A stretch of 64,000 nt of DNA from Selenomonadaceae bacterium (GTDB lineage: Bacteria; Bacillota; Negativicutes; Selenomonadales; Selenomonadaceae). Below the pieces are notes generated by a model. That model was not told the origin of the DNA. It saw only the letters and a program-made list of their open reading frames with translations, and made no database searches. Below are positions 1 to 61,125 of this stretch, piece after piece; positions within the stretch are counted from its first letter, which is position 1, and each line of letters starts with the position of its first letter. The stretch is from contig JAFVEM010000024.1 in NCBI GenBank assembly GCA_017476005.1, positions 1 through 64,000 on the forward strand. The letters run 5' to 3'. The position numbers and the translations under genes are program-made.

Positions 1-18
1 CGAGCTAACCGTTAAATG

Positions 19-71
19 TCTATTAGGGTTTCCAAAGGGACTGTGTCCCTTTGGCCGCCGGAGGCAAAAAA
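19..71 (+). repeat. Dispersed intergenic palindrome, copy 1
   Basis: A head TCTATTAGGG is followed by a hairpin with CCAAAGGGA at 32-40 and TCCCTTTGG at 46-54, then the tail CCGCCGGAGGC and an A-run. The same head, hairpin and tail recur at 45660 and 52438, and related versions occur at 25336, 25477, 33886, 39699, 46449 and 46547. It lies just beyond the fliK stop and could also act as a terminator for that gene. Confidence 0.75.
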
Positions 72-8543: not shown

Positions 8544-10232
8544 TCAGTCCCCCAAGACCATCTCGTCGAGGCGTTTGCCTCCCGGCACCATGGGCAGTAC
8601 GTCTTCTTCCTCCGGCACGATAACGTCAATGAGGGCGGCGCCCTTTTCGGCGAGGATTTGGGGGAGTTTGCTGTCCAGTTCCTCTTTTTTCGTCAGGCGA
8701 TACCCCTTTACCCCCATGGCTTCCGCCAGTTTTACGAAGTCGGTCTTGCCCTTCAGCTCCGACTGGGAATAGTGATGCTGATAGAACAGCCGTTGCCACT
8801 GCCCCACCATACCCAAAATGGAATTGTGTACCACAATAACTTTTACGTCGATATCGTTGTCGGCGATGGTGGCAAATTCCTGACAGTTCATCATGATACT
8901 GCCGTCCCCAGTGAAGAGGATCACTTTTTGCTCCGGTTTCCCCAGTTTCGCCCCCATGGCCGCAGGCAAACCGTAGCCCATGGTGCCTTGGCCGCCGGAG
9001 GTCAGGAAATGCCGGGGCCGGTAGGTCTTAAAAAATTGCGCCGCCCACATTTGATGTTGTCCCACGTCGGTGACGGCGACGGTATTTTCGTCAGAAAGCT
9101 CGCTCACCTTGGCAATGAGTGCTTCGGGTTTTATCACATCGCCTTCTTCTTTGTAGCCAAAGGGGTGGGCGACGTGTATGGCCGTAACGTGTTCTAGCCA
9201 AGGAGCGAATCTGGCGGCAAAATCGTCGTCGGCGGCAAAAATTTTCTGCCGGAAAATGGGCAACGACCAGCGCAAATCCCCCAGTACCCGGAGGTCGGCG
9301 TTGACGTTTTTGTTTATTTCCGCCAAATCCAACTCAAAATGCACCACCTTGGCATGGGGGGCAAACTCCGCCACTTTCCCCGTCACCCGGTCGCTGAAAC
9401 GCATCCCTACGCACAGGAGTAAATCGCACTCCTGAATGGCCATGTTCGCCCCGTAGGCGCCGTGCATCCCGGCAAAGCCCAAATACCCCGGTCTGTCCGC
9501 CGCCACCGTCCCCAATCCCAACAACGTGCTGGCTACGGGAGTCTTGAGTTTGTCCAAAATCAGCCCCATTTCCTCGGCGGTATCGGAGCCGTTAATGCCG
9601 CCGCCCACGAAAAACAGGGGCTTTTTGGCCGCTTTTAGCGCCGCCACCACTGTGTCGATTTCCTTTTCGTCCCCTTCGTATTTGCCGGAGTAACCCCGAA
9701 GTTTTACGGTGTCGGGATAAACGTAATCTATTTGGGTGTCAAAAACATCCTTAGCCACATCGATAACCACTGGGCCGGGACGACCGGTGCGAGCGATAAA
9801 AAAAGCCTCTTTGATGATGCGCGGCAATTCGTTGGCATCCTTCACCAAATAGTTGTGTTTGGTGATGGGGGTAGTGATACCAAAAATATCCGCTTCTTGG
9901 AAGGAGTCTTTGCCGATATAGGGATTGGCTACCTGTCCGGTGAAACACACCAAAGGCACCGAATCGGTACAAGCCGTAGCAATCCCGGTAATGAGATTGG
10001 TGGCGCCGGGGCCTGAGGTGGCGAAAACCACCCCCACTTTTCCCGTGGCTCTGGCGTAGCCGTCGGCGGCATGTACCGCTCCTTGCTCGTGACGGGTCAG
10101 GATATGGCGAAAATTCATGTTGTACACAGCATCATAAAGGGTGAGAACCGCGCCGCCGGGATAACCGAAGACCACATCCACCCCTTCTTTTTTCAGGCTT
10201 TCCAATACTGCCTGCGCTCCGTTCATTAACAA
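8544..10232 (-). CDS. ilvB: Acetolactate synthase large (catalytic) subunit
   Basis: This thiamine-diphosphate enzyme joins two pyruvates, or pyruvate and 2-ketobutyrate, in branched-chain amino-acid synthesis. Visible landmarks are VVFGYPGGAVLTLYD with the catalytic Glu in TRHEQGAVHAADGYARATG, the central FAD-domain segment VGGGINGSDTAEEMG, and the ThDP/Mg motif LFTGDGSIMMNCQEFAT. Length (562) is typical. TTG 10232 is favoured by spacing from AAGGAGG; ATG 10226 is the alternative. A sigma-70 promoter lies at 10304-10332. It is the first gene of the probable ilvB-GT11-ilvN-FkbM-GT2-eptA operon. Confidence 0.94.
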   Translation of the reverse strand: MLMNGAQAVLESLKKEGVDVVFGYPGGAVLTLYDAVYNMNFRHILTRHEQGAVHAADGYARATGKVGVVFATSGPGATNLITGIATACTDSVPLVCFTGQVANPYIGKDSFQEADIFGITTPITKHNYLVKDANELPRIIKEAFFIARTGRPGPVVIDVAKDVFDTQIDYVYPDTVKLRGYSGKYEGDEKEIDTVVAALKAAKKPLFFVGGGINGSDTAEEMGLILDKLKTPVASTLLGLGTVAADRPGYLGFAGMHGAYGANMAIQECDLLLCVGMRFSDRVTGKVAEFAPHAKVVHFELDLAEINKNVNADLRVLGDLRWSLPIFRQKIFAADDDFAARFAPWLEHVTAIHVAHPFGYKEEGDVIKPEALIAKVSELSDENTVAVTDVGQHQMWAAQFFKTYRPRHFLTSGGQGTMGYGLPAAMGAKLGKPEQKVILFTGDGSIMMNCQEFATIADNDIDVKVIVVHNSILGMVGQWQRLFYQHHYSQSELKGKTDFVKLAEAMGVKGYRLTKKEELDSKLPQILAEKGAALIDVIVPEEEDVLPMVPGGKRLDEMVLGD

Positions 10233-10797: not shown

Positions 10798-11727
10798 CTA
10801 GAGTTCCACCGTGAGGTCGTCCATGGCCTCTTGCATGGCTTTTTCTACGGAGCGTTCCAAAATTTTTCCACCGAAAGAACCGTTATGAGCTTCACCTTGG
10901 GCGGCGATGTCGTTGCGGTACAGGTATGTATTGTTGGCCGTATCAATGAATTTAAGACGGAGCCACACATTTTTGTGATTAGTGACGCTGTTGAATACGA
11001 CGAAATTGTGCTTTTCGTTCTCAGCTTTCCCATTACTCATGGTAAAAACAAAGACATAATCATAACCGAGTTCTCGCCCTACTTGAGCATAATCTTCTTT
11101 TCGCATATCAGCTAGGCCACGAGGGCGATTAGGAACTGGCATCCCATCAACATCAAGCTTTTCCTGTTTTTGAGTGTGTTCCCAGTGTCTATCTCCATTG
11201 TAATTGTATAATTCCTTGCGGCCACCGAACAAGAAATCGCCAACACCATTTACAATATTGGATACCACACCATTGTCTTGGCCATATAATTTTTTTGCTG
11301 GCTCTGGAGTGGTCACAGTGGCATTTCCTCGTTCTTCGTAGTAACGAGCTTCTGCCGCCTCCAACAATCGCGTATTCACATCCGTCCCCTTCATCACCGC
11401 AAACTCATCAGACGGAAATTTGCGTCTCAATTGACTGTAGATTTGATTTTTTACTCTATTCTCAACCACGAAATTTTCATCGCCGTTGATAATCACCGCA
11501 ATTCGCGGCCTGTCATCATGCGCCTTTTGTCCCTTCCAGATAATGCTGTGGGCGCGCTGGTAGATGTCCGATTCTTCGTAGTCCTTGCTCTTTTTCATTT
11601 CCCGTTCGGCTATTTTGATGGTGGCCGCCTCGGCGGTTCTAAGCCCATTTCCCTCGTCAGCTACCAAAAATCCCGGAGTGGGAAGGGCAAGCGCCAGCGT
11701 TACCATGGGGATTAAAAATTTTTTCAC
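10798..11727 (-). CDS. Exported protein of unknown function
   Basis: I do not recognise this 309-residue protein. It begins with a clear signal peptide (MKKFLIPMVTLALALPTPGF) with probable cleavage after ~AEA near residue 34. The mature part starts with a charged helical stretch. It then holds RPRIAVIINGDENFVVENRV, a pattern like periplasmic proteins that start with a short beta strand, and later YDYVFVFTMSNG and NVWLRLKFIDTANNTYLYRND. The last helix is LERSVEKAMQEAMDDLTVEL. The start is GTG 11727 with GGAGGTG eight bases before it. It has its own terminator, and a decayed tail of a second copy lies at 10345. A periplasmic or surface role is likely. Confidence 0.65.
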   Translation of the reverse strand: MKKFLIPMVTLALALPTPGFLVADEGNGLRTAEAATIKIAEREMKKSKDYEESDIYQRAHSIIWKGQKAHDDRPRIAVIINGDENFVVENRVKNQIYSQLRRKFPSDEFAVMKGTDVNTRLLEAAEARYYEERGNATVTTPEPAKKLYGQDNGVVSNIVNGVGDFLFGGRKELYNYNGDRHWEHTQKQEKLDVDGMPVPNRPRGLADMRKEDYAQVGRELGYDYVFVFTMSNGKAENEKHNFVVFNSVTNHKNVWLRLKFIDTANNTYLYRNDIAAQGEAHNGSFGGKILERSVEKAMQEAMDDLTVEL

Positions 11728-11751: not shown

Positions 11752-11855
11752 TATACTCGCGAAAGAAAAACTATTCCTTTTTCGGAAAATTCGTCCGCGG
11801 TATATACGGATAACGTAAGACTTTCCTGCGGAAAGCTCTAACGTTATCCAGTATA
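11752..11855. other. Structured element, copy A (covarying long hairpin)
   Basis: This ~104-base element shares its order and blocks with 40369-40471. It starts TATACTCGCGA, has CGTCCGCGGTATA in the middle and ends in a long hairpin. The outer stem GGATAACG (11808-11815) pairs with CGTTATCC (11842-11849). The inner stem CTTTCC (11821-11826) pairs with GGAAAG (11830-11835) over a TGC loop. The final AGTATA (11850-11855) is complementary to the first TATACT (11752-11757). In copy B the outer stem is GGAGAGC/GCTCTCC, so pairing is kept while sequence changes. On the minus strand it is the 5' leader of the exported-protein gene at 11727. I do not recognise it as a known RNA family. Confidence 0.6.
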
Positions 11856-11865
11856 ACTGTCAAGC

Positions 11866-13875
11866 CTACCGCTTCATATTCACCGCAGTCTCCAACAGCT
11901 CGTCGCTGACGGTTATGATTTTGGAATTAGCTTGGAACCCTCGCTGGGTTATAATCATGTTGGAAAATTCTTCCGCCACCTCTACATTGGACATTTCGAG
12001 GTAGCCGGGTAGGATGGTAGTGCCGTATTCTCCCGTATGAATGATAAGGGGAGTTCCCGAATTGGCGCTTGCCTGATAAAGGTTGGTGCCGGTTTTCACC
12101 AGACCGGGGGAGTTGTTAAAATGCGCCAAAGCCACTTGCGCTTCGGGACGAACAAGACCGTTGGTATAGGTGCCGGTGATTATGCCGTTGGAATCCACCT
12201 GTAGTGCTTTCAGCGTAGCACTGGCGGAGCCGTCGCCGCTGGCGGTAACGGTGGTATTTTCATCGTACTGGGTAACAGCACTGAAATCGAGAGTCACATC
12301 TTGCGTCGTACCCGACAATCCTTCGGTGCCGTTTCCATAACTTAGCGTCATAAGCCCTGTAATATCGGTAGTTATGTTTCCCGCGTCGTCAAATTCAAGT
12401 TCGACGGCAGGCATGGTAGCGGTACTCTTATTGCCGTTGGCATCCACAAATTCATAAGTAGTTGTATCGCCCACTTTTACCGTGGAGCTATTCGCTAAAG
12501 AGACCAGCCACTTATTTGTGGATTGTAAAGAGCCATCCTCCGCTAATTCGCCTTCACAAACAAAATATACGGGGATTTGATAGGTGTTTCCCGAACTGTC
12601 GTATATGTTGACCGACGAAGCCACAGGCTCGGAATTATAAGATGTAAGTACCGGCGTCACGATGTCCTCATAGGTTTCCGTTTCCACGGTAACTTGTCTT
12701 TTAGGGGTAATGGCAGCTATAACATCCCCATCAAATTTCAACTCACTACCAACTTGAGGTAAAGGCTGGTCATCGGCTAGGTCCAGGCCGATACCAACGG
12801 TACAACCGTTAGCTACGCCATTTTCATACTGTTTGATATACATGTAACTTCCATCGGGACTGACAGATGTAACTCGCCAACCCTCTCCGGGAATCTCTAC
12901 GGAATGATCCATCGATATGGCATTATAATTCACACCGTCAACGATAAAAGGCAATGGCGATACCTCATTTACGGTGCTTCGTAAGCGCAGACGGCTCGTG
13001 TCGGCAGAAAATGTATCACCTACTTTTATATTGCTAGTGCCTTTGGCTATAGGTCTAATTCTAGATGTATTGCCATCGTCATCTTCTAGCGTCACAAATG
13101 CGGTGCTACTTAAACTGTTGGTGACTGCTCCATCTATCGATTTTACCGTCCAATTTTTGCTTAGATCTATATCATTTTGTGTTACGTTGTGAAGTATATA
13201 ATCACTATCACCAATGGTTACATTAAGATTATAGCGGCTCTCCTTCTGTTCTAAGACATTTATATCTCCCACTTCTTCCCATATAGTTTCGGTTTTCGTT
13301 ACTTTTACGGTGGTTATCTCCTCACCCCATATACCCAAAGCCGTATCGGCATCCAAGTTATATTTGAAATCAACTTTCGTGGTGGGAGTGGCCGCCAGCA
13401 CACTGTCAATTTTGATATTTCCTATCGCCCCGGTGGTGTCAATCACGCCATCCGTTGCCGTCCAACCTTGCACGAAATGACCACTGCCGGGCAGGACATA
13501 GTTACCGGCCTTATCGAACTCAAAACCACCGTTTCGTGTATAGTAGGTTTCATTGCCGCTTTTTACCACGAACAAACCATCGCCGGAAAGGCAAAGGTCT
13601 GTGTTTTTGCCCGTTGCCATCGGCGCGCCGTCTCTAAAGATGGTGTCTATACCGGCAACCATAGTGCCTAGGCCAACTTGTTTGGCATTGGTGCTACCGA
13701 TGTTACCTTCAGACGCTGTGGCGCCTTTCACGTTTTGGGAAAAAATATCGGCAAAGGTGGCGCGACCGGTTTTGAAGCCAGTAGTATTAACGTTGGCAAT
13801 GTTGTTACCAATAACGTCCATCCGTGTCTGATGGCTTTTTACCCCCGAGAATCCCGTGTATAACGAGCGTATCAT
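11866..13875 (-). CDS. flgE: Flagellar hook protein FlgE
   Basis: FlgE polymerises into the flagellar hook. The N-terminal rod/hook signature MIRSLYTGFSGVKSHQTRMD followed by VIGNNIANVNTTGFK is unmistakable. The C-terminal signature LEMSNVEVAEEFSNMIITQR and FQANSKIITVSDELLETAVN is also present. The middle (about 90-560) is an extended variable domain rich in Thr and Asp, making the protein longer than the ~400-residue enteric FlgE; long hook proteins are common in Firmicutes. ATG 13875 is chosen over GTG 13887, which lies within the GAGGAG ribosome site. flgD and other hook genes are not adjacent. Confidence 0.93.
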   Translation of the reverse strand: MIRSLYTGFSGVKSHQTRMDVIGNNIANVNTTGFKTGRATFADIFSQNVKGATASEGNIGSTNAKQVGLGTMVAGIDTIFRDGAPMATGKNTDLCLSGDGLFVVKSGNETYYTRNGGFEFDKAGNYVLPGSGHFVQGWTATDGVIDTTGAIGNIKIDSVLAATPTTKVDFKYNLDADTALGIWGEEITTVKVTKTETIWEEVGDINVLEQKESRYNLNVTIGDSDYILHNVTQNDIDLSKNWTVKSIDGAVTNSLSSTAFVTLEDDDGNTSRIRPIAKGTSNIKVGDTFSADTSRLRLRSTVNEVSPLPFIVDGVNYNAISMDHSVEIPGEGWRVTSVSPDGSYMYIKQYENGVANGCTVGIGLDLADDQPLPQVGSELKFDGDVIAAITPKRQVTVETETYEDIVTPVLTSYNSEPVASSVNIYDSSGNTYQIPVYFVCEGELAEDGSLQSTNKWLVSLANSSTVKVGDTTTYEFVDANGNKSTATMPAVELEFDDAGNITTDITGLMTLSYGNGTEGLSGTTQDVTLDFSAVTQYDENTTVTASGDGSASATLKALQVDSNGIITGTYTNGLVRPEAQVALAHFNNSPGLVKTGTNLYQASANSGTPLIIHTGEYGTTILPGYLEMSNVEVAEEFSNMIITQRGFQANSKIITVSDELLETAVNMKR

Positions 13876-13887
13876 AAAACCCTTCAC

Positions 13888-25476: not shown

Positions 25477-25550
25477 CGGGAGTCCAGAGGACTAAGTCCT
25501 CTGGCAGGTGCAGGGCAGCGCCCTGCTAGGGTTTGGGGCAAAGCCCCAAG
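25477..25550. repeat. Dispersed palindrome cluster, copy 3
   Basis: Hairpins CCAGAGGACT/AGTCCTCTGG (about 25484-25504), GCAGGGC/GCCCTGC and TTGGGGC-AAA-GCCCCAA (25533-25549) follow one another. The last hairpin is shared with the copies at 33886 and 46449. The cluster lies directly downstream of the IIC stop. Confidence 0.65.
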
Positions 25551-33856: not shown

Positions 33857-33885
33857 TACTAATCTCGATTAAGATTTTTCTTAAA

Positions 33886-33942
33886 TCTATTAAAGGGTGC
33901 AGGGGGATTATCCCCCTGCTGGGGTTTGGGGTGAAACCCCAA
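33886..33942 (+). repeat. Dispersed palindrome, copy 4
   Basis: The head TCTATTAAAGGG is followed by GCAGGGGGA/TCCCCCTGC and by TTGGGGTGAAACCCCAA. It lies between infB and rbfA, where an RNA hairpin could uncouple expression of the downstream genes. The same arrangement occurs in reverse at 46449-46508. Confidence 0.7.
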
Positions 33943-33989
33943 GAATAAAATTCGTTTAATTAAGCCTATGTATAGGAGGAATGTTTTCC

Positions 33990-37156: not shown

Positions 37157-37204
37157 AAAAAATATATATATGGGGTAAAGCCCCAACAAAAAGGGGTGGC
37201 GAAA

Positions 37205-38875
37205 ATGAAGGGTGCAACGGCAGTGGTAAGGTGTTTGCAGGAGCAGGGAGTAGATACGCTGTTCGGCTACCCCGGGGGGATGATATTGCCCCTGTATGAT
37301 GCCTTGTATGACGAAACCGGGATAAAACAAATATTGGTGACCCATGAACAGAATGCGGCGCATGGCGCCGACGGCTACGCCAGAGCCTCGGGGAAAGTGG
37401 GGGTATGCATAGCGACTTCCGGCCCCGGCGCTACCAATCTCATTACGGGATTGGCCACGGCCTTTATGGATTCCATTCCCGTAGTGGCTATCACCGGGCA
37501 GGTTGACACCGCTCTTTTGGGGCGAGATGCCTTTCAGGAGACGGATATTTTGGATATGACCATTCCCATTACCAAGCATAATTACAAGGTCAAGGAGCCA
37601 AGACTGCTGGTAAAAACCATGCGCGAGGCCTTTGACATTGCCCGAAGCGGCAGGCCGGGGCCGGTTCTCGTCGATATTCCGCGAGATGTGTTTTTTGCCG
37701 AAGTGGATTATGAGCCGCTGAATTTGGAAGAAAAACCAAAGAGCAAGCCCGACGCAGATTTTTTGATATGCGCCGCCGAGGCCGCCGACGAAATAGCCAA
37801 AGCCAAACGACCGGTGGTTATTGTGGGCGGAGGCGCGGTGTCTGCCGGAGCTACCCAAGAGATAATCGCCTTTATCGAAAAATATCGTTTGCCGGTAGTA
37901 CATACCTTGATGGGCATCGGCGCCATACCCAGATCACATCCGCAGTCTTTGGGGTTCGCCGGTATGCACGGCAAGAAAGCGGCCAATCACGCCGTGGCGG
38001 CGGCAGATCTGGTTATTGCCATAGGCAGTCGCTTCGGCGATCGCCAAACCGGCTCCCTCAGTAAATATACTTCCAATACCAAAGTTATTCACATCGACAT
38101 AGACCCGGCGGAGATAGATAAAAACGTCGCCGGCAGTCTGGGACTTGCCGGCGACATGAAAACCATCTTGGGACTCCTTATGCGCCACGAATCGGGCGTT
38201 GATTTAGGCGCGTGGTGGGAGCAAATTCGCTCCTGGGAAGAAGAATACGATTACGATTATCAGGTGAATCGCCTCACCGTCCCTTGGGCCATGAATCAAG
38301 TGGCTAAAGCCACCGCCGGGAAACCCTTCGCCTTTGCCACCGATGTGGGGCAACATCAAATGTGGGCGGCCTTGCACCTGCGAATAGAAGAAGCGCGTAC
38401 TTGGCTAACCTCCGGGGGACTGGGGACTATGGGCTTCGGACTGCCGGCGGCCATGGGAGCGCAAGTTTATTATGGCAAGACACGGCGTGTGATTCATGTG
38501 GTCGGCGACGGCGGCATAAAGATGACGGGCAGCGAATTTTATACCATCGCGCGGCTAAAGCTCCCGGTAATTTCCTTAATCGTGAACAACACCAGCCTCG
38601 GCATGATTCGCCAGCTACAAAAAGTCATGTATAAAGAGCGCTACATCGCTTGCGAATTTGACTACGAGATGGATTATGTGGCCTACGCCAAGAGTTTCGG
38701 TATCGAAGCGGAGGCCGTATCCACCCAAGAGGAATTTGCCGAGGCTTTCCGCAAAGCCTTGGCGGCAGAAGAGGAGCCGCGAGTTATCGTGCTAAACGTC
38801 TGGCGCAGTTTTGTGGAGCCCATGACCAAAGGCGGCGCGAGGATAGACGAATTTGTGGATTTCGCGCCGAAATAA
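37205..38875 (+). CDS. Second acetolactate synthase catalytic subunit
   Basis: A 557-residue ThDP enzyme of the IlvB family: DTLFGYPGGMILPLYDALYD, catalytic Glu in VTHEQNAAHGADGYARA, and the ThDP motif VVGDGGIKMTGSEFYT. It is clearly a paralogue of the gene at 8544. No small subunit gene adjoins it, so it may use the IlvN at 7137 or act unregulated. ATG 37205 has AAAAGGGG ten bases upstream; the GTG at 37196 is too near. A catabolic AlsS-type role cannot be excluded. Confidence 0.92.
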   Translation: MKGATAVVRCLQEQGVDTLFGYPGGMILPLYDALYDETGIKQILVTHEQNAAHGADGYARASGKVGVCIATSGPGATNLITGLATAFMDSIPVVAITGQVDTALLGRDAFQETDILDMTIPITKHNYKVKEPRLLVKTMREAFDIARSGRPGPVLVDIPRDVFFAEVDYEPLNLEEKPKSKPDADFLICAAEAADEIAKAKRPVVIVGGGAVSAGATQEIIAFIEKYRLPVVHTLMGIGAIPRSHPQSLGFAGMHGKKAANHAVAAADLVIAIGSRFGDRQTGSLSKYTSNTKVIHIDIDPAEIDKNVAGSLGLAGDMKTILGLLMRHESGVDLGAWWEQIRSWEEEYDYDYQVNRLTVPWAMNQVAKATAGKPFAFATDVGQHQMWAALHLRIEEARTWLTSGGLGTMGFGLPAAMGAQVYYGKTRRVIHVVGDGGIKMTGSEFYTIARLKLPVISLIVNNTSLGMIRQLQKVMYKERYIACEFDYEMDYVAYAKSFGIEAEAVSTQEEFAEAFRKALAAEEEPRVIVLNVWRSFVEPMTKGGARIDEFVDFAPK

Positions 38876-39698: not shown

Positions 39699-39808
39699 TT
39701 GGGGCTTTACTTTGTATAAGCGACCTCTAATGGCTTACGCCCTAAGAGTCTGCTTATGCCCCAAACCCCACAAGGGGAAATAATTTCCCCTTGACCCCTT
39801 AATAGATT
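39699..39808 (-). repeat. Dispersed palindrome, copy 6, split by a 49-base insert
   Basis: On the minus strand the unit reads TCTATTAAGGGG, a GGGGAAA/TTTCCCC hairpin, then GTGGGGTTTGGGGC and AAAGCCCCAA. The last hairpin loop is interrupted by 39709-39757. The insert carries its own hairpin ending ATAAGC/GCTTAT, so one palindromic element appears to have entered another. Compare the intact copy at 46449-46508. Confidence 0.6.
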
Positions 39809-40326: not shown

Positions 40327-40355
40327 TTGGTATCCGGTTGCCGATATGTTATAAT
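40327..40355 (+). promoter_or_regulatory. Promoter upstream of pth
   Basis: TTGGTA (40327-40332) and TATAAT (40350-40355) are separated by 17 bases. A start near 40362 would place the structured element (40369-40471) as the main part of the ~134 nt pth leader. Confidence 0.65.
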
Positions 40356-40368
40356 CATCTCGGTGCTT

Positions 40369-40471
40369 TATACTCGCGAGCAGAGAAATTTATCAATATA
40401 GAACTGCTCGTCCGCGGTATATGCGGAGAGCCTAAGACCTTCCTTCGGAATGTCTAATGCTCTCCAGTATT
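40369..40471. other. Structured element, copy B (covarying long hairpin)
   Basis: The blocks of copy A (11752-11855) occur in the same order: TATACTCGCGAG, then CGTCCGCGGTATA, then a long hairpin. The outer stem here is GGAGAGC (40425-40431) with GCTCTCC (40459-40465), against GGATAACG/CGTTATCC in copy A. The inner TAAGAC...GTCTTA-like and TTCC-TTC-GGAA pairs are also kept. An extra stem CGAGCAG (40376-40382) / CTGCTCG (40404-40410) is specific to this copy. It ends ten bases before the AAGGAGG of pth. Confidence 0.6.
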
Positions 40472-40495: not shown

Positions 40496-41098
40496 ATGAA
40501 AATAATCGCCGGACTGGGTAATCCCGGCGCCGAATACGCCAAGACCAAACACAACGTGGGTTTTATGCTGGCAGATGCGCTGGCGGCCAAATACGAAGCC
40601 GCCGACTGGCGCGAACAGTTGGGTGCCTTGGTAACAGAGATACGCCCGGGGGGAGAAAAGGTTCTCCTCGTTAAACCCCAAACTTACATGAACGACAGCG
40701 GCCGCGCCGTTGGCGCCTTATGCCGTTGGTATAAACTTAACCCGGAAGATTTGACGGTGGTACACGACGATATGGATTTGCCTTTGGGAACCGTGCGCTT
40801 GCGGCAAAAGGGCGGTTCCGGGGGGCACAACGGCATAAAATCCATCATAGCGCATCTGGGAAGCGAAAATTTTGCTCGCATCCGCCTAGGTATCGGGCAT
40901 CCTACCGGGCAACCAGCGGTTATAGATTATGTATTATCCCCCTTTTCCTCGGAGGATGAAAAAAAGATAAGGGAGGCCATCGCCTACCTGTTGCCGGCGG
41001 TGGAATGCTTGGTGCTTGAGGGTATCGATATGGCCATGAATCGGTTTAACCCGCGCAAAGAAAAAAAGCACAAGGCACCCGGAGACGAAAAATCATGA
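40496..41098 (+). CDS. pth: Peptidyl-tRNA hydrolase
   Basis: Pth frees tRNA from peptidyl-tRNA that drops off ribosomes. The catalytic His is in AKTKHNVGFML; other landmarks are GLGNPGAEY, VKPQTYMNDSG, DDMDLPLGTVRLRQKGGSGG and HNGIKS. Length 200. AAGGAGG is eight bases before the ATG. The stop overlaps cbiD as ATGA. Confidence 0.96.
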   Translation: MKIIAGLGNPGAEYAKTKHNVGFMLADALAAKYEAADWREQLGALVTEIRPGGEKVLLVKPQTYMNDSGRAVGALCRWYKLNPEDLTVVHDDMDLPLGTVRLRQKGGSGGHNGIKSIIAHLGSENFARIRLGIGHPTGQPAVIDYVLSPFSSEDEKKIREAIAYLLPAVECLVLEGIDMAMNRFNPRKEKKHKAPGDEKS

Positions 41099-45090: not shown

Positions 45091-45655
45091 CGCGTCGGGG
45101 GATTTGCGAGAGGCAAAAAAAGAGCTGAGGCGAGCCGTAAGAAAACGGCGGCAAGCCTTGAGTGCCGTCGAACGACAAACCAAAGATGCGATTATCATTG
45201 AGCGCCTAAAGGCGCTCCCCTCCTTCAACCGGGCGCAAAACATCATGGCCTACGCCTCCCTGCCGGAGGAAGTGCAACTTTATGCGCTTATTAATTTTTG
45301 TCGCCGCCGTGGCCAAAACATTTTACTTCCGGCTCTCGCTGACGACGGAACCATGACGGCTACTGTATTGCCGGAGGGCGCGGCTATAGCGAGCGGTGGG
45401 GTGTGGCAAAAAACCGGGGAGTTTTTCCCCCCGGAAGAAATCGAGTTTATCCTTGTCCCCGGTGTGGCCTTTACCCCAAACGGTGACCGCCTAGGCATGG
45501 GGGGCGGCTACTACGACCGCTTTTTGCCCTTGGCAAAAAGCGCAAAACGTATCGCCCTAGCATACGATTTTCAGGTACTGGACACCTTGCCCACTGACGA
45601 GCTGGACGCAAAAGTAGCAATAACCCTGACAGAAACATCGCTATACCGAACATAA
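45080..45655 (+). CDS. 5-formyltetrahydrofolate cyclo-ligase
   Basis: The enzyme converts 5-formyl-THF with ATP to 5,10-methenyl-THF. Landmarks are AKKELRRAVRKRRQALSAVE near the N-terminus, IMAYASLPEEVQLYALI, and the nucleotide-binding LVPGVAFTPNGDRLGMGGGY followed by YDRFL. ATG 45080 or ATG 45068 may be the start; the latter is attached to GGAGG. It overlaps the yajC end by 11 bases. Confidence 0.92.
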   Translation: MRTDASGDLREAKKELRRAVRKRRQALSAVERQTKDAIIIERLKALPSFNRAQNIMAYASLPEEVQLYALINFCRRRGQNILLPALADDGTMTATVLPEGAAIASGGVWQKTGEFFPPEEIEFILVPGVAFTPNGDRLGMGGGYYDRFLPLAKSAKRIALAYDFQVLDTLPTDELDAKVAITLTETSLYRT

Positions 45656-45659
45656 AAAA

Positions 45660-45710
45660 TCTACTAGGGATTCCCAAGGGACTGTGTCCCTTGGGCCGCC
45701 GGAGGCAAAA
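45660..45710 (+). repeat. Dispersed palindrome, copy 7
   Basis: TCTACTAGGGATT is followed by CCCAAGGGA/TCCCTTGGG and the tail CCGCCGGAGGCAAAAA. It matches copy 1 at 19-71 nearly base for base in the tail, with changes on both sides of the stem that keep pairing. Confidence 0.75.
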
Positions 45711-46448: not shown

Positions 46449-46508
46449 TGGGGCTTTGCCCCAAACCCCAGCAGGGGAAATAATTTCCCCTGCACCCCTT
46501 AATAGATT
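46449..46508 (-). repeat. Dispersed palindrome, copy 8
   Basis: On the minus strand: TCTATTAAGGGG, hairpin GCAGGGGAAA/TTTCCCCTGC, then TTTGGGGCAAAGCCCC. This is the intact form of the unit interrupted at 39699-39808 and matches copy 4 in layout. Confidence 0.7.
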
Positions 46509-52352: not shown

Positions 52353-52437
52353 ACAAACCACCTCTTTTGGGGGTTAGGGTGAAAAATTTTCCGTTGCAGT
52401 CGTTCTTCCGTACAAAGACGAAAATAATCGTTAAAAG

Positions 52438-52516
52438 TCTATTAAGGTTTCCAAAGGGGATTATCCCCTTTGGCCGCCGGAGGCAAAATAAGAATTTGGC
52501 CGCCGGAGGCAAAAAA
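52438..52516 (+). repeat. Dispersed palindrome, copy 10, with duplicated tail
   Basis: The unit TCTATTAAGG, CCAAAGGGGA/TCCCCTTTGG and CCGCCGGAGGCAAAA is followed by a second TTTGGCCGCCGGAGGC tail (52496-52516). The upstream flank CGTTAAA also matches copy 1 at position 10. It lies between the exported protein and trmD genes. Confidence 0.75.
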
Positions 52517-52523
52517 TAAAAAC

Positions 52524-60248: not shown

Positions 60249-61125
60249 TCACAGCAAGCTGTACATCCTGCCAATTTCCTGTACCTTCTCCACGGTGAGA
60301 TTGGCATACTGCGCGACCTTTTCCACGGGCAGATTGTCTCGGAGCATACTTATGGCATTAAAAGTGCGAGCCTCCGCCAATCCGTTTGCATGGCCTTCCT
60401 CGCGGCCTTCCTCGCGACCCTCCTTGCGACCTTCCTCACGGCCTTCTTCGCGGCCTTCTTCGCGGCCAATATCCATCAATTCCTCCATAACCTTGCACAT
60501 CTGATTCAATCCTCCTTCCTTTTGTTTGAAGAACCGCGCCCGTTTGGCGAGTACGTCATAGTGCATATTGTCGGGATCCGTACAGCGAAAATCGTGGATG
60601 AGCTTTCCTAACGCGGGATCATCCTGCGCGGCGGCGTTGACGTAAATTATCTCCGCTTTGTCCTTAAACCGAGTGTTTATTCAGTTCCTTAATGGTACGG
60701 CGAATATGGTAAATCGGCAGTCCTCCGCCCAACACGTCAGTTTCAGTTAAAAATATAACCTTGATTTCGTTCAAGTCATGCCATTTAACGCCTTTTTCGA
60801 CACTCATGGTGTCCAGCATACTGCTGTTGTACCTTGCTCGTAAGGGAGCGGCTCCCTCAGGGCTACGCTGAACTTCTACGTCGTAATTCTTCCCGTCCGC
60901 GTCTTCGGCGAACACATCAAAGATAACCTCGCGTCCGTATATGTTGGGGACTTGTTCCTGCGTTGTCACTCTTTTGACCTTTAACTTTGGCCTTTTGATT
61001 ACTATGCGCAACAGCAGTTCCATACACTCGGGGCTGTCCTTAAAACAGCAGTGGAAAAAAGTATCGTCTATCAGCCGTAACCGTTGTATGTAGGGCATAT
61101 ATTTCTGAATTTTATCGTTTACCAC
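60249..61125 (-). pseudogene. Frameshifted Rpn-family recombination-promoting nuclease
   Basis: The first frame (61125-60664) gives the N-terminal 153 residues: RLIDDTFFHCCFKDSPECME, then REVIFDVFAEDADGKNYDVE and VQRSPEGAAPLRARYN, the PD-(D/E)XK core. The second frame (open before 60566, stop at 60249) continues with FKDKAEIIYVNAAAQDDPAL, a (GREE)n helix and a C-terminal EKVAQYANLTVEKVQEIGRM. An indel near 60671-60685 separates them; the codon run AAT AAA CAC TCG is where frames meet. The GREE stretch is a 12-base tandem repeat (about 60400-60470). Confidence 0.7.

What the first reader, a model, noticed from the sequence alone, without database searches (positions are those of the whole stretch)
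40369..40471. Duplicated ~103 nt element with compensatory base changes, possibly a new structured RNA
Copies at 11752-11855 and 40369-40471 share TATACTCGCGA, CGTCCGCGGTATA, TAAGAC and TTCC..GGAA in the same order. The outer stem differs in sequence on both sides (GGATAACG/CGTTATCC versus GGAGAGC/GCTCTCC), yet pairs in both; changes in two copies that keep pairing are the mark of structural selection. Copy B is in the pth leader on plus and upstream of an exported-protein gene on minus; copy A precedes another exported-protein gene on minus. I do not recognise it as a known riboswitch. A DNA-level palindrome (transposase-recognised REP-like) is an alternative.
Basis: partly seen in the sequence, partly recalled or inferred. 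Interest (0 to 1): 0.75.

Follow-up and report, generated by a model that had tools for sequence, protein, structure and literature searches.

The report
Miniature mobile DNA repeat, two hairpins
The two look-alike 103-104 bp sequences are copies of a small, gene-less mobile DNA repeat that has spread to at least 31 places in this genome and to relatives in the same bacterial family; it jumps into TA sites and is not a gene-control RNA, so it is a new family of a well-known kind of genomic parasite.

Summary
Copies A (11752-11855) and B (40369-40471) belong to a dispersed repeat with 31 full-length copies in the 2.7 Mb genome (18 A-type, 13 B-type), plus truncated ones. A covariance model finds it in 18 of 189 genomes of the same family (Selenomonadaceae, 9 of 30 genera) and in no other family of the class. 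Pairing in the right-hand hairpin is kept by changes on both sides (9 pairs; 0 of 500 shuffles match).

The RNA-regulator reading is not supported. There is no Rfam match. Copies read equally often in either direction relative to same-strand neighbours (9 and 9). Copies A and B face opposite ways relative to transcription. The pth-leader copy is missing at pth in 13 relatives. An empty site in a genus-mate shows a single TA where the filled site has TA-element-TA. Ends are TA-TACT...AGTA-TA, with a pyrimidine before and often a purine after.

[quoted passage not shown] The driver was not identified. Copy B is probably carried as a 5' leader on the pth mRNA. Novelty: new member of a known kind.

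The parts
11752..11855 (+). Copy A, full 104 bp A-type element, counting the flanking TA at each end
   Evidence: 113.9 bits with model R1
11752..11757 (+). Left terminal inverted repeat TATACT; first TA is the target-site TA
   Evidence: sequence; boundaries from copies with unrelated flanks; empty site
11752..11804 (+). Left hairpin of copy A: TATAC.CGCG ... CGCGGTATA
11808..11849 (+). Right hairpin of copy A: GGATAACG ... CGTTATCC with inner AGA/TCT and CTTTCC/GGAAAG
11850..11855 (+). Right terminal inverted repeat AGTATA; last TA is the target-site TA
   Evidence: sequence
40369..40471 (+). Copy B, full 103 bp B-type element, in the predicted pth 5' leader
   Evidence: 86.8 bits with model R1
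40369..40421 (+). Left hairpin of copy B: TATAC.CGCGAGCAG ... CTGCTCGTCCGCGGTATA
40425..40465 (+). Right hairpin of copy B: GGAGAGC ... GCTCTCC with inner AGAC/GTCT and TTCC/GGAA
40466..40471 (+). Right terminal inverted repeat of copy B, AGTATT (last A changed to T)
40327..40355 (+). Promoter-like site (TTGGTA-17-TATAAT) that would place copy B in the pth leader; host sequence, not part of the element
   Evidence: consensus match only
40496..41098 (+). Neighbouring gene pth, peptidyl-tRNA hydrolase (context)
   Evidence: PF01195, E 1.2e-71
11866..13887 (-). Neighbouring flagellar hook-type (FlgE/F/G) gene; copy A lies between its 3' end and the next minus-strand gene at 10798-11727 (context)

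Best explanation
[quoted passage not shown] It inserts into a TA dinucleotide and duplicates it, so every copy reads TA-TACT...AGTA-TA. SHOWN: dispersed multicopy element with fixed ends, unrelated flanks, TA duplication at an empty site, patchy presence in one bacterial family, paired arms kept by changes on both sides. INFERRED: it has no transposase of its own and was moved in trans by a TA-targeting DDE transposase of the IS630/Tc1-mariner type recognising its ends; the folded arms are kept because the transposase or a single-stranded intermediate needs them, or because only well-folded copies are tolerated. Copies that land in transcribed leaders, such as copy B before pth, become stable hairpins on the host mRNA and may change its stability as a side effect. 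(Confidence given is for the MITE reading; for IS630 as the driver it is about 0.45.)
For: 31 full copies with identical ends and unrelated flanks, on both strands and many contigs. Empty site: G199 reads AACT[TATACTGG...GAGCATA]CATAAAAAC where G200 reads AACT-TA-CAGAAAAAC, flanks 92-94% identical over 200 bp each side with exactly 2 bp between the flank matches in the empty site; a second site (G212 filled, G211 empty) agrees. Base before the left TA is a pyrimidine in 40 of 43 copies. Patchy: 18 of 189 family genomes, 9 of 30 genera, none in other families of the class. Pth-leader copy absent at pth in 13 other genomes. Truncated and internally deleted copies. Degraded IS630-type transposase pieces occur in G000, and IS630-type genes in three other carrier genomes. 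An IS630 of a family member, present in 6 copies, ends in TA-TACTAATCTC...GAGATTAGTA-TA, the same terminal TACT/AGTA.
Against: No autonomous element with the same ends was found. DDE_3 (IS630) was not detected in G027, G211, G212 or G162, which carry many copies, although most are incomplete MAGs. The IS630 remnant in G000 appears to end in ACAGTAAACG, not TACTCGCG. Only one empty site is clean and one more is consistent; the other candidates had diverged too much at the junction.
Confidence: 0.9

Rival explanations
1. A cis-acting structured RNA (riboswitch or attenuator) that controls the downstream genes, duplicated with them.
For: Strong, evolutionarily supported secondary structure; copy B lies between a promoter-like site and pth.
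Against: Copies read equally in both directions relative to same-strand neighbours (9 vs 9). Copies A and B are opposite relative to transcription. Neighbouring genes of A and B are unrelated. Not conserved at pth. Precise TA insertion. No Rfam match.
Confidence: 0.03
2. A REP/BIME-like element mobilised by a Y1 (HUH) transposase acting on single-stranded hairpins, as for RAYT/REP or IS200/IS605-derived elements.
For: Two adjacent hairpins with selected pairing, as in REP pairs.
Against: No Y1_Tnp (PF01797) in the genome. The TA duplication and the inverted-repeat ends are not features of IS200/IS605 insertions, which leave no target duplication (general knowledge). No strict tetranucleotide at the left border.
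Confidence: 0.04
3. A MITE as above whose copies also encode, on the minus strand, a functional structured RNA that is under selection.
For: In the right hairpin, mismatches that would be G-U on the minus strand outnumber those that would be G-U on the plus strand (39 vs 10 cells, or 28 vs 10 without one dominant pair; binomial p about 0.005, relatedness not corrected).
Against: The sign reverses if the doubtful closing pair (48 G-T cells) is counted; the left hairpin shows no asymmetry (12 vs 15). Copies are inserted in both directions.
Confidence: 0.08
4. The element is mobilised by a TA-targeting transposase other than IS630 (for example an IS5/IS427-type enzyme).
For: YTAR-like target context; IS630 transposase not detected in several carriers.
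Against: The IS5/IS427-associated domain DUF4096 was found in only one carrier, G198, with a stop inside.
Confidence: 0.2

Closest known systems
RUP, Repeat Unit of Pneumococcus (107 bp; IS630-Spn1 proposed as driver; PMC2229807, PMC3049150)
   Same: About 105 bp, intergenic, about 100 copies against 31 here, inserts at TA, folds tightly with paired ends, no ORF.
   Different: RUP ends match a resident IS630; no such partner was found here. Different sequence and host. Here the body is two separate hairpins.
ERIC/IRU and RU-3 elements of enterobacteria (PMC2229807)
   Same: Short terminal inverted repeat (7 and 4 bp against 4-6 bp), TA at the ends (RU-3 at one end only), structured transcripts, patchy over a family.
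   Different: Different sequence and length (ERIC 127 bp) and host family.
CIR elements of Caulobacter and Brucella (PMC2229807)
   Same: Two long stem-loop arms joined by a short linker; TA at the ends.
   Different: CIR lacks terminal inverted repeats and carries a conserved GANTC motif; here the ends are inverted repeats and no GANTC is conserved.
Correia/NEMIS elements of Neisseria (PMC2229807)
   Same: TA at the ends, target duplication, RNA hairpins on neighbouring mRNAs.
   Different: 24 bp terminal inverted repeats against 4-6 bp here; unrelated sequence (recalled for the ends).
REP/BIME with RAYT (Y1) transposases (PMC2817692)
   Same: Paired palindromic hairpins scattered between genes.
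   Different: No Y1 transposase in the genome; TA duplication at the insertion site.

Membership tests
MITE (miniature inverted-repeat transposable element) | Short (<500 bp), non-coding | tested here: met
   103-123 bp; no ORF of 80 aa or more overlaps either copy
MITE (miniature inverted-repeat transposable element) | Terminal inverted repeats | tested here: met
   TATACT/AGTATA, 98.1% of cells paired, with one copy changed on both sides (TAGACT/AGTCTA, L028)
MITE (miniature inverted-repeat transposable element) | Target-site duplication at insertion | tested here: met
   TA, from one clean empty site and one consistent site
MITE (miniature inverted-repeat transposable element) | Multiple dispersed copies with unrelated flanks, mostly intergenic | tested here: met
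   31 full copies, nearly all between predicted genes
MITE (miniature inverted-repeat transposable element) | Autonomous partner with the same ends in the genome or a relative | tested here: inconclusive
   No partner with TACTCGCG ends seen; an IS630 of G019 shares only TACT/AGTA
IS630/Tc1-mariner-driven element | TA target duplication | tested here: met
IS630/Tc1-mariner-driven element | Cognate transposase present in carriers | tested here: inconclusive
   PF13358 in G000 (remnants), G026, G164, G002; none detected in G027, G211, G212, G162, G001, G198, G199, G174
REP/RAYT or IS200/IS605-derived element | Y1 (HUH) transposase in the genome | tested here: not met
   PF01797 absent from G000 (93.6% complete)
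Riboswitch or cis-regulatory RNA | Member of a known RNA family | tested here: not met
   No Rfam match at gathering thresholds in the window; nothing at E<=1 in the element itself in 5 loci
Riboswitch or cis-regulatory RNA | Fixed orientation upstream of related genes, conserved across species | tested here: not met
   9 vs 9 orientations; absent at pth in 13 relatives

The most novel reading that the evidence does not exclude
The MITE family encodes a structured RNA or single-stranded DNA form from its minus strand whose fold is itself under selection (an asymmetry of A-C over G-T mismatches in the right hairpin), so that the element spreads or regulates through a folded strand and not only through duplex ends; the recurrent solo left ends, nearly all cut near the apex of the left hairpin, would be products of that route.
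Probability: 0.08. Interest if true: 0.65.

Novelty: new member of a known kind. Interest (0 to 1): 0.3.

Why it matters
It is a MITE family, apparently undescribed, spread over at least nine genera of rumen and gut Selenomonadaceae. It supplies a marker for recent transposition in genomes known mostly as MAGs. It is also a caution: two-sided compensatory changes between copies are usually read as the mark of a functional RNA, yet here they occur in a mobile DNA element whose copies lie in both orientations. Unannotated copies could be mistaken for new riboswitches.

Tried and rejected
Rfam at gathering and at E<=1: nothing. Similarity in plasmids, phages and IMG/VR: nothing. Y1/RAYT driver: no Y1 gene. 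IS5/IS427 driver: DUF4096 only in G198. IS630 loci searched with the element model for element-like ends: none. Statistical search for a target duplication outside the TATA ends: none. A 4 bp TATA duplication was rejected because copy L028/L045 has TAGA at the left and TCTA at the right, which is not a direct repeat, and because the empty site holds only TA. Depletion of convergent gene pairs (1 of 27) is not significant against the window's 6 of 37 (p 0.11). Wobble-strand test: suggestive but dependent on one doubtful pair. The literature library held no description of this repeat, but it covers only open-licence papers.

Full report
OBSERVATION. The two sequences are at the stated places and align as described. 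Each folds better than all 200 dinucleotide shuffles on either strand. Searching the whole genome with each copy shows that they belong to two subfamilies of one dispersed repeat: 18 A-type and 13 B-type full copies, 85-100% identical to their reference copies, with many partial copies. Eight of the 18 A-type copies are 99-100% identical to copy A, itself included, which points to recent spread.

ANATOMY. Each copy has four parts (for the borders): a six-base end TATACT; a left hairpin TATAC-T-CGCG...CGCGGTATA with a variable loop; a right hairpin of 7-8 outer pairs with conserved inner AGA/TCT and a TTCC..GGAA apex; and the end AGTATA. The flanks are unrelated between copies, so the borders are sharp. 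Related genomes hold versions of 103-123 bp in which the left hairpin is perfect (TATACTCGCAA...TTGCGAGTATA) and the apex of the right hairpin is longer. In those genomes left and right hairpin types also occur in other combinations, for example an A-like left half with a B-like right half (L095).

COVARIATION. On 27 diverse copies 97.7% of cells form standard pairs, nine pairs change on both sides, and none of 500 shuffles or six slid registers reaches this. The end-to-end pairing TATACT/AGTATA is nearly invariant, with one copy changed on both sides. The structure is therefore real, but covariation alone does not say whether RNA or DNA is selected. In an RNA the G-U intermediates should favour one strand. 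In the right hairpin the plus strand shows 39 A-C and 10 G-T cells, which would favour the minus strand, but one doubtful closing pair with 48 G-T cells reverses the total, and the left hairpin shows no asymmetry. I call this inconclusive.

MOBILITY. Joined flanks of copies in genus-mates were searched in the other species of the genus. One site is clean. G199 carries AACT[TATACTGG...GAGCATA]CATAAAAAC, G200 has AACT-TA-CAGAAAAAC, and the flanks are 92.5% and 93.5% identical over 200 bp each side with exactly two bases (TA) between the two flank matches. G198, also empty there, keeps TTACATAAAAACTGCC directly at the right border. A second site (G212 filled, G211 empty) is consistent with a single TA. 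Other empty sites were confirmed as lacking the element but are too diverged at the junction to define it. Over 43 copies the base before the left TA is a pyrimidine in 40 and the base after the right TA is a purine in 31; no duplication lies outside the TA.

DISTRIBUTION. A covariance model finds the element in 18 of 189 genomes of the family and in 9 of 30 genera. A wider scan of 381 genomes of the class adds no other family. An exact-pattern scan of GTDB representatives returns mainly rumen Selenomonadaceae MAGs. Nothing was found in viral contigs, phages or plasmids. The copy in the pth leader is unique to this genome: 13 other genomes with a pth match lack it there.

NOT A CIS-REGULATORY RNA. 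Among 27 copies with a predicted gene on both sides, 9 read with and 9 against same-strand neighbours, 8 lie between divergent and 1 between convergent genes (simple ORF-based gene calls). Copy A lies between two minus-strand genes, so a transcript reading through it would carry its minus strand. Copy B lies behind a plus-strand promoter-like site before pth. The same element is thus carried in opposite senses, next to a flagellar hook-type gene and pth respectively. No Rfam family matches.

MECHANISM. TA duplication, short inverted ends and trans-dependence are the marks of bacterial MITEs such as RUP, which is thought to be moved by IS630-Spn1 (PMC2229807, PMC3049150). I therefore infer a TA-targeting DDE transposase of the IS630/Tc1-mariner type. 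In support, IS630-type pieces occur in this genome and in three other carriers, and an IS630 of a family member has the same terminal TACT/AGTA beside TA. Against it, no IS630 was detected in several carriers, and the remnant here appears to have other ends, ACAGTAAACG. A Y1 (REP/RAYT) driver is unlikely, as is an IS5/IS427 one. The driver may be lost, or may sit in assembly gaps, which is common for IS elements in MAGs.

CONSEQUENCE. Copy B most likely rides as a stable double hairpin in the pth leader, ending 24 bases before the start codon (inference). Whether it affects pth is not known.

HANDLING NOTE. One copy in G027 (L182) proved to lie inside a gene that looks like a HigB/Gp49-type toxin of a toxin-antitoxin pair. 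A script had already joined its flanks, among others, before this was noticed. That site was then left out of the searches and is not used as evidence.

VERDICT. A new family of a known kind of element; moderately useful, not surprising to a specialist. The strand asymmetry and the recurrent solo left ends are the only features that would raise the interest.

Noticed in passing
G000 C8:2585, C58:9783, C3:44885, C47:69842, C1:5418, C44:70347, C42:391, C60:10650 (L061-L066, L068, L074): About eight near-perfect solo left ends (21-34 nt), nearly all cut near the apex of the left hairpin, against about one solo right hairpin (L073). Similar solo left ends are seen in G002 (C20:42723) and G026 (C6:53446). 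Cause unknown.
   Followed up: partly
L067 (C58:19051), L069 (C14:4873-4925), L071 (C40:19961): Internally deleted copies of 32-57 nt that keep the left end and a right-end-like GTATA.
   Followed up: partly
L033 (G000 C36:105501-105613): A full copy followed directly by TATACTCACGA, a degenerate second left end that shares the TATA; possibly one copy inserted at the border of another.
   Followed up: no
G002, query 504-662 (left flank of L167): Another repeat family of about 160 bp with ends AGGGCGTGTTGA / TCAACACGCCCT, at several places in G002; the L167 copy lies at its border.
   Followed up: no
G019 C1 (L231, L234, L237, L241, L242, L243): Six IS630 copies of about 1.13 kb with ends TA-TACTAATCTCAA...TTGAGATTAGTA-TA.
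   Followed up: partly
window 6-69, 45647-45710, 52425-52488, 52495-52522: A different dispersed repeat with TTTGGCCGCCGGAGGCAAAA, 83-86% identical over 64 nt.
   Followed up: no
window 39757-39808 and 46457-46508, with inverted matches at 25521-25549 and 33881-33945: A further palindromic repeat (TGCCCCAAACCCC...TTTCCCCT...CCCCTTAATAGATT), 92% identical over 52 nt.
   Followed up: no
window 8544-10232 (-) and 37196-38875 (+): Two acetolactate-synthase-like paralogues in opposite orientation account for the longest inverted repeat of the window.
   Followed up: no
window 60389-60467: Tandem 12-nt repeat (GCGGCCTTCCTC-like).
   Followed up: no
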